Assembly: GCA_016872605.1 (NCBI GenBank)
Contig: VGZI01000003.1
Span: 1 to 64,000 of the forward strand
Direction of reading: 5' to 3'
From: Planctomycetota bacterium
GTDB lineage: Bacteria; Planctomycetota; Planctomycetia; Gemmatales; Gemmataceae
DNA: 64,000 bases
The first letter of the stretch is position 1. Each line of letters opens with the position of its first letter. This document shows positions 42,950 to 57,292 of this stretch, one piece after another. The position numbers and the translations under genes were made by a program. The notes below the pieces were generated by a model. That model saw nothing but the letters and a program-made list of their open reading frames with translations. It was not told the origin of the DNA and ran no database searches.

Positions 42950-43021
42950 AGACGCCGGTGGGAGTTGAACCCACTTGAAGCCGGGTTGCAGCCGGCTGCC
43001 TGGCCGTCCAGCCCCAGCGTC
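42950..43021 (-). tRNA. tRNA-Cys (anticodon GCA)
   Basis: The minus strand folds as a cloverleaf: acceptor GACGCTG/CGGCGTC (one G-U), anticodon arm GCCGG-CTGCAAC-CCGGC with GCA, and T arm GTGGG-TTCAACT-CCCAC. The discriminator base is U, as expected for tRNA-Cys. No CCA is encoded. Positions 8-9 are GG instead of the usual U8, and the D stem is short (GCT/GGC), so it is a divergent sequence. Confidence 0.8.
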
Positions 43022-43028
43022 GTGGAAC

Positions 43029-43064
43029 CGCTTGTAATCGCGCGAGCGCGAAGCCGCAAGCGGC
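43029..43064. repeat. Palindrome 'ccgcttg...caagcgg' between tRNA genes
   Basis: ccgcttgtaatcgcgcgagcgcgaagccgcaagcggc, related to the palindrome at 47754-47814. Confidence 0.5.
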
Positions 43065-43072
43065 AAAAAAAG

Positions 43073-43146
43073 GGTGGCCGGGGGGAATCGAACCCGCCCC
43101 TTCGACTTTCACAGAGTCGCGTGCCGAGCCAGTACACACGACCACC
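43073..43146 (-). tRNA. tRNA-His (anticodon GTG)
   Basis: Minus-strand cloverleaf: an encoded extra G(-1), acceptor GTGGTCG/CGGCCAC with discriminator C, both identity features of tRNA-His; anticodon arm CGACT-CTGTGAA-AGTCG with GTG; T loop TTCGATT. The T stem has one C-C mismatch (GCGGG/CCCCC), and the D arm can only be drawn with a four-base stem that leaves one base between acceptor and D stem. Confidence 0.75.
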
Positions 43147-43147
43147 A

Positions 43148-43216
43148 TTGGATTGCAGATTTCGGATTGCAGATTGAAACGCAATCTCGGCAATCTGAAG
43201 TCTGCAATCTGCAATT
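43148..43216. repeat. Short direct/inverted repeats 'gattgcagat/tctgcaat' between tRNAs
   Basis: ggattgcagatttcggattgcagatt...tctgcaatctgcaatt: two direct copies followed by two inverted copies, able to form a hairpin between the His and Arg tRNA genes. Confidence 0.6.
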
Positions 43217-43222
43217 CGTCAA

Positions 43223-43295
43223 TGCCCCGACCAGGAGTCGAACCCGGAACGTCTCGTTCGAAGCGAGGTATGATTGTCCATTTCACCATCGGGGC
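43223..43295 (-). tRNA. tRNA-Arg (anticodon TCG)
   Basis: Minus-strand cloverleaf: acceptor GCCCCGA/TCGGGGC with discriminator A, D arm GTGA-AATGGACAA-TCAT containing the arginine identity base A after GG, anticodon arm CCTCG-CTTCGAA-CGAGA reading TCG, and T arm CCGGG-TTCGACT-CCTGG. The last anticodon-stem pair (C27-A43) is a mismatch. U8 is present. Confidence 0.8.
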
Positions 43296-43447: not shown

Positions 43448-43724
43448 AACGATATTCGTCGACACAGGATTCAGTCGGTTGCGAGAAAAGTCGCTTGCGG
43501 TTGCGCGAATCGTCACGATGCGCGACAACGCCGATGCGGCGCGGACTTGCATGAATGGATGCGATGCAACATGGCCGTCTCCAGAAGGAGGGTTCCCGCG
43601 TGAACTGAAGAAAAGACGGTGCGCGTGGCCCAAGGGTTCGCGCGAAAAAAAAACGCACGACACGCCGACGCGCCGCGGGGAATCGGCGGCGTCGGCGGAT
43701 CATATCGGATGCTGGCCAGCAGGC

Positions 43725-43910
43725 TTACGACGCGCTGCCGACGGCCTTGCCGACGGTTGTGAACGTGGTGTTGGCGTTCTGACCGAGCGTCGTGATGGCG
43801 CCGATGCACACGACGATGATCAGGGCCAACATGACGGCATATTCCACGGCCGTCGGGCCGTCTTCGCGCTGCAGGAAGTCAACGAACGATTGGGTAAGCT
43901 TGGAGAACAT
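43725..43910 (-). CDS. flp: Flp-type (type IVb) pilin
   Basis: A 61-residue Flp/Fap pilin. The start is ATG 43910 (ribosome site 'agaggt'); the ORF-track entry begins 39 codons too early. The protein has a short basic leader, then 'EDGPTAVEYAVMLALIIVVCIGAITTLG', where the Glu and Tyr spaced 'E-Y' after the cleavage site and the hydrophobic helix are the Flp pilin hallmarks. It should be processed by a TadV-type prepilin peptidase and assembled by Tad secretion machinery, which is not in this window. Its long leader holds a cyclic-di-GMP riboswitch (44056-44142). Confidence 0.92.
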   Translation of the reverse strand: MFSKLTQSFVDFLQREDGPTAVEYAVMLALIIVVCIGAITTLGQNANTTFTTVGKAVGSAS

Positions 43911-43949
43911 GACAAACCTCTCTGGTCCAGAGACGTATCGGCATTGGCG

Positions 43950-44011
43950 GTCTGGAGTTGCCGAAGCCGGACGGCGCGGACTTTCCGGGCCGTCGAACCG
44001 AATCTCCAGAC
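43950..44011 (-). promoter_or_regulatory. Possible expression-platform hairpin in the flp leader
   Basis: The perfect 8-base inverted repeat gtctggag (43950-43957)/ctccagac (44004-44011) encloses a GC-rich loop with further pairing. A second small dyad, tctctgg-a-ccagaga, lies at about 43919-43933 next to the ribosome site. Either could be the part of the leader that switches with ligand binding (inference). Confidence 0.35.
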
Positions 44012-44055
44012 GTTCCCATTCGAACACACGTTCAAACTGGCGGTGCGTGGGACCA

Positions 44056-44142
44056 CTCCATTCGGTAACCTGGCATTCCGATTCTCTGCGGAACCGGACC
44101 CATGGCTTTGCGTCCCACCCTTGCGGATGGTTTGCCCTTGTC
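44056..44142 (-). promoter_or_regulatory. Cyclic-di-GMP-I (GEMM-I) riboswitch
   Basis: The minus strand shows the conserved GEMM-I blocks in order: 'AAGGGCAAACC', a stem CCATCC-GCAA-GGGTGG capped by a GNRA tetraloop, 'GGGACGCAAAGCC', a variable stem, and 'AGGTTACCGAATGG', where the 3' part 'GGTTACCGA' forms the tetraloop receptor and closing stem. These match the Vibrio Vc2 aptamer almost word for word. It lies 146 bases upstream of the flp start codon and downstream of a TTGACA promoter, so it should control the pilin. Confidence 0.88.
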
Positions 44143-44251
44143 GTGGATCACGAACCAACGCCTGGTTCTTCTCGAAAAAAATCGAATCAGAAAACGAGCG
44201 CGGCCAATTGACGGGATGGTTGGGGCCGCGCGACGCATTGCAACCACATTA

Positions 44252-44280
44252 ACCCTAGATTGTGTTTTTCCCAATGTCAA
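44252..44280 (-). promoter_or_regulatory. Candidate promoter of the flp leader
   Basis: On the minus strand: perfect TTGACA (44280-44275), 17-base spacer, TAGGGT (44257-44252). Transcription would start near 44245 and produce a leader of about 335 nt containing the riboswitch. Confidence 0.5.
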
Positions 44281-50941: not shown

Positions 50942-53900
50942 ATGATTCGTATCCTTCTCGCGTCCCTCCTACTTCTCATTCCCGCCACGACGCAAGCTCA
51001 AGAGGCAGTCCGCTTCGTGCGGTCGCCGGACATTTCGCCCGACGGCAAAACCGTCGCCTTCAGCTATCTCGGCGACATCTGGCTCGTCGACGTCAACGGC
51101 GGCGTCGCCAAGCATCTGACGATGCACGAGAAGCACGATTTCAATCCCGTCTTCAGCCCCAATGGCAAGTGGATCGCGTTCTCCTCCAACCGCCACGGCC
51201 AATACGACGTCTTCATCATTCCCGCCGAGGGAGGAAAGCCGCGACGCCTGACCTTCGACTCGGCCGACGATCATGTCACCGGCTGGTCGCCCGACAGCAA
51301 GCACGTGCTGTTCATGTCGGGGCGCTCGGTTGATCTTCCGTTCCGCATGGAACTCTTCACCGTCTCGATCGACGGCGGCCCGGTCAAGCAGATCAGCGCC
51401 TTCGAAGGACGAGACGGCGTGTACAACCCCACGGGCGATCTCATCGCCTATATTCGCGGGCCGGGCGTCTGGTATCGCAGGGGATACAAAGGCTCATCGA
51501 ATGACGACATCTGGCTTTGCAATGCCGACGGCTCGAACAATCGCCGCGTCACGACGCACCAGGGACAGGACAGCTATCCGATGTGGTCGGCCGACGGCAA
51601 GCACCTTTACTATGTCAGCGATGTCGCCGGCGGATTGGCCAACATCGTCAAACAGGCGATCGATCCGCAGTCGCCCGCCGCCCAGGCCGTCGCCGTGACG
51701 CATCACGCAGACGAGTTTGTCCGCCGCGCTCGCATGTGCGCCAATGGTGAACTGATCGTTTATGAGTGCGGCCCCGATGTCTGGGTACATTCACTCAAGA
51801 CCAACAAGAGCCGAAAGCTTCGTATCGAAGTGCGTGCCGACGACAAGACGAATCCGGAAGTCGTCAAGACGTTCACCACCGGCGCCACCGAGTTTGCCTG
51901 GTCGCCGAACGAAAAGCATGTCGCCTTCGTCGCACACGGCGAAATTTTCCTCATGAGCCGGGATGGAGGCAATGCGAAACGCCTCACCGATCATCCGGGT
52001 TTCGATCACGGCATTGCCTGGTCGCCCGATGGGCGACGCATGCTTTTTCTTTCGGATCGCAACGGCCACGAAGACATCTACGCGCTCGAATCCGACGACC
52101 CGGAGCATCCCGACATCGTCGGAGCACACCAATACAGGGTGAAGCAACTCACCAAGACGCCTGAAGCCGAATTCGGCATCAGGTTTTCGCCGGACGCTCA
52201 GCGCGTCCTCTTCATCCGTGCCGGCAAGCTCATGACGATGGACCCGGACGGCGGAAATCAGAAAGTGCTCGTCAACGAAGGCCAGATTTTCGATTACGAG
52301 TGGTCGCCCGATGGCCAGTGGATTTGCTACGCCCGCATGGACGGCTCGTTCGCCAGCGAGCTGTTCATCATCCCGTCGACCGGCGCCACCGCCCTGAACC
52401 CGGCCCGCAACATCACGCGCTTCGCCACCTACAACGGCGGCGTCACCTGGAGCCGCACGGGGAACAAACTCGCGTTCATCAGTGTTCGCAAAGGAAACAC
52501 GCCGAGCTCCTATGTCCTGTCCTTGCAAAAGCCACTCTCCGCCGGCGCCTTCCTGAGCAAGGACATCGACTGGGACAACATCCATCTCCGCGTCAAGCAG
52601 CCGTACGGGATGAATATCTCCGAATGCGCCATCTCCAATGACGGATCGAAAATCGCCTTTCGTGGACAAATCGACGACGCCGAGGATCTCTGGATCGCCG
52701 ACGCCAACGGCGGCTCGATCCTGCGCCTCACCAACGGCAACCTCAAACCCGCGCAGATCACCTGGTCGAAATTCTTCGCCGGGCAAATCTACTTTCGCGA
52801 CAACAACGGCAACCTTCGCGGCATCATGATCGGCGGCCCCACCGTCGTCGGCCCCACCACGCTCAACTTTTCGGCCCGAATGGCGATTCGCCAGGACCAG
52901 CTCTTTCAAGAAATCTTCGACCAGAGTTGGCGCGCTCTGGACGAGAGCTTCTACGACAAGAACTTTCACGGCGCCGACTGGAAGACGATTCGCGCCAAAT
53001 ACCGACCGCTCGTTGCCCACTGCGGCATGAAAGAGGACCTGTACACCTTGATCAGCCTCATGCTCGGCGAACTCAACGCCTCGCACCTGGGCATCTCCGG
53101 CAACCTCGGCAAGGCCGAGCAAGAGACGGCCGATCTGGGCTTGATCTTCGACCGTTCGCATCCCGGGCCCGATCTGAGAGTCGGCGAGATTCTCAAGGGC
53201 GGCCCCGCAGATCGCCGCGGTCTTAACATCAAACCCGGCGATCGCATCGTCCGCATCGACGGCGTCGAACTGACCAACACGACCAACGTGTCGAAGCTGC
53301 TCAACGACAAGGTCGGCGAAGTCGTCACGCTGACCATCGCCAGCGCCGCCGACGCGAAGACCCGGCGCCGCGTCGAGATTCGCGCCGAGGGCCGAGCCAA
53401 GGTCAACGAACCAATGTATGAGCGCTGGCTCAAGCGCAACGCCGACCGCGTCACCGAGCTAAGCAAGGGCAAGCTCGGCTACATCCACATTCCGAACATG
53501 CAAGAGCCCGGCCTGGAACGCTTCGTCCGCTCGCTCTATTCGGACAACTTCGACAAAGAAGGAATTGTCCTCGACGTTCGCTACAACGGCGGCGGGTTCA
53601 CGCACGATCAGGTCTTGGCCTACCTCACGGGCAAGGAGCACACCATCTTCAGCCATCGCGACGGGTCATCGGGCCTCGTGCTCCGTTCCTACGATCGCAA
53701 GTGGACCAAGCCGTTGACGCTGCTCATCAACAACCGCTCGTACAGCGATGCCGAGATCTTCCCGCACGGCTTCCGCACCTGGGGCCTGGGAAAGCTCGTC
53801 GGCCAGCCGACTGGCGGGTTCGTCATCGGCACGCGCAACATCACGCTTATCGACGGCTCCACCTTCCGCACACCGCGCATCGGTGTCCACACGGTCAAAG

Positions 53901-57145: not shown

Positions 57146-57292
57146 CATAGCCGCGGAGCGGCGTAAGCCAGTAGCCAGGCTCGCAAGACCCTGGACCTGG
57201 CCGATCACGACACAAGCCGCGCAGCGGCGAAAGCCTTCCCAGGATCTCACGACCCTGGCTATTGGTTTCCGTCGCTCCGCGACTCTACCATG
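57146..57292. repeat. Repeat pair 'gccgcggagcggcg...ccagg...accctgg'
   Basis: Two related units in a row: 'agccgcggagcggcgtaagccagtagccagg' with 'agaccctgg', then 'agccgcgcagcggcgaaagcctt' with 'acgaccctggctattggtttccgtcgctccgcg'. The last block pairs back to the first, giving a structure of about 145 nt in the gap between convergent genes. Confidence 0.6.

What the first reader, a model, noticed from the sequence alone, without database searches (positions are those of the whole stretch)
43911..44280. Cyclic-di-GMP riboswitch in front of an Flp pilin gene
The minus strand contains the GEMM-I blocks GGGCAAACC, a GNRA-capped stem, GGGACGCAAAGCC and GGTTACCGA in correct order and spacing. A TTGACA promoter lies upstream and the flp pilin ATG downstream. 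The block that distinguishes c-di-GMP from cGAMP readers keeps the G form, as far as can be judged by eye. This would directly tie the surface-attachment second messenger to Tad pilus production in a planctomycete. The following 145 nt hold an inverted repeat and a dyad at the ribosome site that may be the switch.
Basis: partly seen in the sequence, partly recalled or inferred. Interest (0 to 1): 0.85.

Follow-up and report, generated by a model that had tools for sequence, protein, structure and literature searches.

The report
c-di-GMP riboswitch before pilin gene
A stretch of RNA in front of a small pilin gene in a Gemmataceae-type planctomycete is a genuine sensor of the cyclic di-GMP family, very probably reading the bacterial "settle down" signal cyclic di-GMP, and the same arrangement recurs in front of pilin genes across the class Planctomycetia.

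Summary
Confirmed. The minus strand at 44145-44060 is a class-I cyclic-di-GMP (GEMM-I) aptamer: 66.6 bits to RF01051 (cutoff 35) and 66.4 bits to its sub-family RF03167 (cutoff 59). It keeps the c-di-GMP pocket letters G20 and A47. The flp pilin gene (43910-43725, PF04964) starts 149 nt downstream. The association is not local: 30 of 89 flp loci listed from 57 planctomycete genomes have an aptamer within 500 nt upstream, in several families. In the window's genus the Tad locus itself (flp-flp-peptidase-RcpC-secretin) lies behind such an aptamer; in the window's own genome that link is inferred across a contig break. No terminator separates aptamer and flp. The Shine-Dalgarno lies in a hairpin that covaries between relatives, a helix (P0) encloses the aptamer, and the hairpin loop (GGACCA/GGACUA) matches a bulge between P1 and P0 (UGGUCC/UAGUCC). 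I infer a translational switch coupling aptamer to ribosome site by bulge-loop pairing; whether c-di-GMP turns it on or off is undetermined. The riboswitch class is known; this target and platform were not found in the papers searched. In passing: copies in front of S8 peptidases mostly carry A20 or C20, so their ligand is open.

The parts
44252..44280 (-). Likely promoter: TTGACA (44280-44275), 17 nt, TAGGGT (44257-44252)
   Evidence: Read from the sequence; same TTGACA-N17-TANNNT at the same place in five relatives; not listed by the consensus scanner.
44149..44152 (-). 5' strand of helix P0 (CGUG), outside the aptamer
   Evidence: P0 complementarity exceeds 20,000 partner permutations over 11 leaders; two-sided changes. 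Only 4 bp in the window, 5-10 in most relatives.
44060..44145 (-). GEMM-I / c-di-GMP-I aptamer; G20 = 44136, A47 = 44109, C92 = 44065 or 44064 (my mapping)
   Evidence: RF03167 66.4 bits, RF01051 66.6 bits; alignment.
44144..44147 (-). 5' strand of P1 (UCCA)
   Evidence: Pairs with 44060-44057 in A1; 93.8% of cells paired, one pair changed on both sides.
44057..44060 (-). 3' strand of P1 (UGGA)
44050..44055 (-). Bulge segment 'a' (UGGUCC) between P1 and P0, complementary to the loop of the ribosome-site hairpin
   Evidence: 6 Watson-Crick pairs with 43928-43923; all cells paired in 8 leaders; permutation p 0.009-0.013 over 11 leaders.
44046..44049 (-). 3' strand of P0 (CACG)
43919..43933 (-). 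Ribosome-site hairpin UCUCUGGACCAGAGA
   Evidence: Arms covary, permutation p 0.0014; found by the scanner; folding gives Shine-Dalgarno bases mostly <2% unpaired.
43923..43928 (-). Loop segment a' (GGACCA)
   Evidence: Best complement of segment a in the whole leader, in 11 of 11 leaders.
43917..43923 (-). Shine-Dalgarno AGAGAGG
   Evidence: 7 nt before the ATG; read from the sequence.
43725..43910 (-). flp pilin gene, 61 aa
   Evidence: PF04964 Flp_Fap 41.2 bits, cutoff 32.2; matches solved Flp-type pilins 8u1k and 8u2b.
43656..43677 (-). Terminator-like hairpin followed by a T run, after flp
   Evidence: suggests that flp is transcribed alone.

Best explanation
The leader of this flp gene is a class-I c-di-GMP riboswitch that controls translation. 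Transcription starts upstream of the aptamer; c-di-GMP binds between P2 and P3 and stabilises P1. P1 and an outer helix P0 flank a 7-nt bulge with UGGUCC. The Shine-Dalgarno about 130 nt downstream is held in a hairpin whose loop (GGACCA) is complementary to that bulge. Pairing of bulge and loop tells the ribosome site whether the aptamer is occupied. I favour that the contact is a kissing contact that locks the hairpin, because complementarity mostly stops at the loop edges and stems reach 10 bp in a relative; opening of the hairpin by strand invasion is the alternative. Shown: aptamer class, gene, hairpin, P0, recurrence. Inferred: ligand binding, bulge-loop contact, translational control. 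Not determined: on or off.
For: Rfam scores; G20 and A47 kept, contacts named in PMC4744006; three strong GGDEF domains with the GD motif, i.e. ordinary c-di-GMP synthases; flp target; 30 of 89 flp loci with an aptamer; no terminator between aptamer and flp; Shine-Dalgarno predicted buried; P0, hairpin and bulge-loop complementarity across relatives, with UGGUCC/GGACCA in one group and UAGUCC/GGACUA in another.
Against: No binding or expression data. The structure was drawn from the same 8-11 leaders on which it was counted, several from one genus. Shuffling the site within single leaders gives only modest p values (0.006-0.53), and over all 33 flp leaders the post-aptamer/ribosome-site complementarity is not significant (energy p 0.30, helix length p 0.04): other flp leaders use other platforms. 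P0 is short (4 bp) in the window. Position 20 is a selectivity factor, not a hard filter (PMC9262584).
Confidence: 0.72

Rival explanations
1. The aptamer is a c-di-GMP-I riboswitch, but control is not translational: it acts on transcription (for example Rho-dependent or a non-canonical terminator) or on RNA stability in the 145-nt leader.
For: Well-studied class-I switches Cd1 and pilM act on transcription (PMC9262584); the mechanism of Vc1 is unclear (PMC4744006). The leader contains much predicted structure.
Against: No terminator-like site between aptamer and flp other than the ribosome-site hairpin, which lacks a true T run (GGTTTGTCAT). The hairpin holding the Shine-Dalgarno is kept by covariation.
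Confidence: 0.17
2. The aptamer reads another cyclic dinucleotide (3',3'-cGAMP) or a variant ligand, as the best-scoring Rfam name c-di-GMP-I-GGC might suggest.
For: RF03167 is the clan winner. A20-type copies exist in the same genome.
Against: Scores to RF01051 and RF03167 are equal (66.6 and 66.4 bits). The RF03167 consensus has G after GGGACGC, the window has A (alignment), as do nearly all planctomycete copies. Position 20 is G. The three strong GGDEF domains keep the aspartate of c-di-GMP synthases; no cGAMP-type GGDEF was seen.
Confidence: 0.08
3. The aptamer is a non-functional relic or chance match, and the flp association is incidental.
For: None beyond the absence of experiments.
Against: E 1.7e-13; kept with promoter, aptamer and hairpin across genera while the linker diverges; recurrence before flp in other families.
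Confidence: 0.02

Closest known systems
c-di-GMP-I (GEMM-I) riboswitch, RF01051, e.g. Vc2 and Vc1 of Vibrio cholerae, Cd1 of Clostridioides difficile
   Same: Aptamer fold, conserved blocks, pocket letters G20 and A47; control of surface and attachment genes.
   Different: Target is a Flp pilin in a planctomycete; ribosome-site hairpin plus P0 and bulge-loop complementarity instead of the terminators of Cd1; Vc1 has no apparent terminator or anti-Shine-Dalgarno (PMC4744006).
c-di-GMP-I-GGC, RF03167
   Same: Scores over its cutoff (66.4 against 59 bits); best-of-clan label.
   Different: Lacks the G that the model consensus has just after GGGACGC; pocket reads G-A-C rather than G-G-C (my reading of the name).
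cGAMP (GEMM-Ib) riboswitch before pilM in Geobacter metallireducens
   Same: Same scaffold; also controls pilus genes (PMC9262584).
   Different: Pocket position 20 is A there and G here; pilM switch is a transcriptional ON switch.
c-di-GMP-II riboswitches before type IV pilus and surface genes in Clostridioides difficile
   Same: Same signal, pilus genes as targets (general knowledge; PMC6200980 listed).
   Different: Unrelated aptamer class.

Membership tests
c-di-GMP-I (GEMM-I) riboswitch, RF01051 | Covariance-model score above the gathering cutoff | tested here: met
   66.6 bits, cutoff 35, full length 1-87
c-di-GMP-I (GEMM-I) riboswitch, RF01051 | Ligand-contacting G20, A47 and C92 | tested here: met
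   G at 44136, A at 44109 by motif position; contacts listed in PMC4744006. The exact C92 position (44065 or 44064) is my mapping.
c-di-GMP-I (GEMM-I) riboswitch, RF01051 | GNRA tetraloop on P2 and conserved P2/P3 core | tested here: met
   Loop GCAA; alignment
c-di-GMP-I (GEMM-I) riboswitch, RF01051 | Selective binding of c-di-GMP | not testable with these tools
   Needs in-line probing or ITC
c-di-GMP-I (GEMM-I) riboswitch, RF01051 | Ligand-dependent control of the downstream gene | not testable with these tools
   Needs a reporter
c-di-GMP-I-GGC, RF03167 | Score above the gathering cutoff | tested here: met
   66.4 bits, cutoff 59
c-di-GMP-I-GGC, RF03167 | G in place of A47 (consensus GGGACGCGAA) | tested here: not met
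   Window has GGGACGCAAA (alignment). That this letter gives the family its name is my inference; the source paper is not held.
cGAMP (GEMM-Ib) riboswitch | A at position 20 | tested here: not met
   Window has G
Flp/Tad pilin | PF04964 match above cutoff | tested here: met
   41.2 bits, cutoff 32.2
Flp/Tad pilin | Tad assembly genes present in the genome | tested here: met
   RcpC/CpaB and secretin next to a second flp on C154; none beside the window's flp

The most novel reading that the evidence does not exclude
A class-I c-di-GMP riboswitch with an expression platform not described before: the signal is passed over about 120 nt by pairing between a bulge presented beside P1 (closed by the outer helix P0) and the loop of a Shine-Dalgarno hairpin, used to set Flp pilin translation in planctomycetes.
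Probability: 0.45. Interest if true: 0.6.

Novelty: new member of a known kind. Interest (0 to 1): 0.45.

Why it matters
It ties c-di-GMP directly, without a protein regulator, to pilin supply in a phylum where c-di-GMP signalling and attachment are little studied, and it holds across several families of Planctomycetia rather than in one genome. The aptamer set (up to 7 per genome) hands experimenters a ready-made c-di-GMP regulon for planctomycetes: flp/Tad, surface S8 peptidases, trypsin-like PDZ peptidases and others. If the bulge-loop contact is right, it is a compact design for long-range riboswitch control.

Tried and rejected
A common platform for all flp leaders: rejected; over 33 leaders the post-aptamer/ribosome-site complementarity is not better than permuted, so several platforms exist. 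An alternative P1 register (GAUCCAC with GUGGUC) as the OFF state: fits the window and most of its close kin but not G009 or the UAGUCC group, by eye, so not adopted. RF03167 as a statement about ligand: rejected, see membership test. Joining contigs C157 and C154 by overlap: no shared ends, so the Tad link in the window's own genome rests on synteny with G003 and G005. First automatic calls of positions 20 and 47 used a faulty pattern and were redone; the few 'G47' calls left are mostly pattern slips, one (L093) is real. Literature: no paper in the held library joins these terms for planctomycetes; the paper that defined the GGC variant is not held.

Full report
1. The observation. The minus strand at 44145-44060 matches the c-di-GMP-I clan of Rfam: RF03167 with 66.4 bits (gathering score 59; E 1.7e-13 for the whole window) and RF01051 with 66.6 bits (gathering score 35). 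The other gathering-score hits in the window are three tRNAs and a marginal Acido-Lenti-1. Fourteen control genomes gave nothing over either cutoff.

2. Which sub-family. The two models score equally. The RF03167 consensus has G directly after GGGACGC; the window has A, and so do nearly all of 139 planctomycete aptamers examined. Contacts in Vc2 are G20, A47 and C92 (PMC4744006). I map G20 to 44136 and A47 to 44109; this mapping is mine. The RF03167 label therefore reflects overall resemblance, not an altered pocket. Position 20 is a selectivity factor rather than an absolute filter (PMC9262584), so c-di-GMP is the most likely ligand but not proven. The genome has three strong GGDEF domains, all with the usual GD motif.

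3. The gene. 43910-43725 encodes a 61-aa Flp pilin (PF04964, 41.2 bits; related to the solved pilins 8u1k and 8u2b). A terminator-like site follows it, then tRNA genes, so flp appears to be transcribed alone.

4. Not a local accident. The window's genome has six aptamers over cutoff; 58 of 97 related genomes have at least one, up to seven, and 62 of 103 in the order. Of 139 aptamers with flanks, 34 precede flp genes. Conversely, of 89 flp loci listed for 57 genomes, 30 have an aptamer within 500 nt upstream; this is a lower bound because the match lists were cut and not all aptamers were fetched. The pairs occur in the window's family and order and in families f5, f6 and f8 of the same class.

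5. The Tad locus. In G003 and G005 (same genus) an aptamer is followed by two or three flp genes, RcpC/CpaB and a secretin, with an A24 prepilin peptidase identified in G003. In the window's genome an aptamer of the same type runs off the end of contig C157, and contig C154 begins inside an flp gene followed by flp, RcpC and secretin. The ends do not overlap, so the join is inferred from synteny. The third flp (C121) has no aptamer in the 450 nt upstream (read by eye). The window's unit is thus a second, solitary flp with its own switch.

6. The leader. Eight leaders in four genera share the window's architecture: promoter-like TTGACA-N17-TANNNT (seen in six of the eight), aptamer, diverged linker, hairpin at the ribosome site. 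A subtype in three further genera has the same elements with other letters. Outside P1 lies a second helix, P0 (observed score 17.9, permuted mean 12.5, none of 20,000 permutations as high). The arms of the ribosome-site hairpin covary (p 0.0014), and the Shine-Dalgarno is predicted to be mostly paired in the window. Between P1 and P0 the 3' side carries a bulge with UGGUCC, complementary to GGACCA in the hairpin loop; the subtype has UAGUCC and GGACUA. Permutation p is 0.009-0.013, and in 11 of 11 leaders the ribosome-site window is the best complement in the leader. On alignment A1 the four helices together have 94.7% of cells paired and exceed all 500 shuffles in covariation score. These counts come from the sequences that suggested the structure, and part of the two-sided change in the contact comes from one leader (G025) in a shifted register.

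7. Mechanism. No terminator lies between aptamer and gene, so I infer translational control. In the complementary pairs the match mostly stops at the loop edges, and in G027 the hairpin stem is about 10 bp; I therefore favour a kissing contact over strand invasion. How ligand binding changes the contact, and so the sign, cannot be told from sequence. Physiology would suggest that c-di-GMP raises pilin; the default fold with a buried Shine-Dalgarno would suit an ON switch; a kissing contact that locks the hairpin would suit an OFF switch.

8. Known or new. The class, its ligand and its link to pili and attachment are known. No held paper reports class-I c-di-GMP riboswitches before flp in planctomycetes, but the library is partial. 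I rate the locus a new member of a known kind, with a possibly new platform.

Noticed in passing
L042 (G000:C6:69090-69189 +), also L055, L063, L068, L050, L059, L105, L066, L084, L119: Aptamers 10-11 nt before large surface-type S8 subtilases mostly do not have G20: 6 with A, 4 with C, 4 with G of 14, against 5 of 125 non-G elsewhere (Pfam). A20 is the cGAMP-type letter; C20 has no assigned ligand that I know. The Shine-Dalgarno seems to overlap the 3' strand of P1.
   Followed up: partly
L043 (G000:C25:28966-29047 +), L018, L080, L094: Aptamers a few bases before the ATG of trypsin-like PDZ peptidases; the own-genome copy has C20.
   Followed up: partly
L040 (G000:C49), L045 and about 25 similar loci: Aptamers followed by a conserved GGACGGGACCC segment with no obvious gene on the same strand; in G000 and G001 the next gene is convergent. 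May be a stand-alone RNA or antisense to that gene.
   Followed up: no
L041 (G000:C179) and about 26 loci with CCCGTCC(A/G)TCCC after the aptamer: A further leader type whose post-aptamer segment forms its own inverted repeat (GGATGGGC...GCCCGTCC in some); in L041 a BatA-domain protein follows.
   Followed up: no
L138 (G073:C14:50592-50676 and 51462-51546 -): Two identical aptamer-flp units in tandem, apparently a recent duplication.
   Followed up: no
window 57239-57284 (+): Acido-Lenti-1 RNA, 37.7 bits against a gathering score of 37: marginal.
   Followed up: no
window 42950-43295 (-): Three tRNA genes in a row downstream of flp.
   Followed up: no
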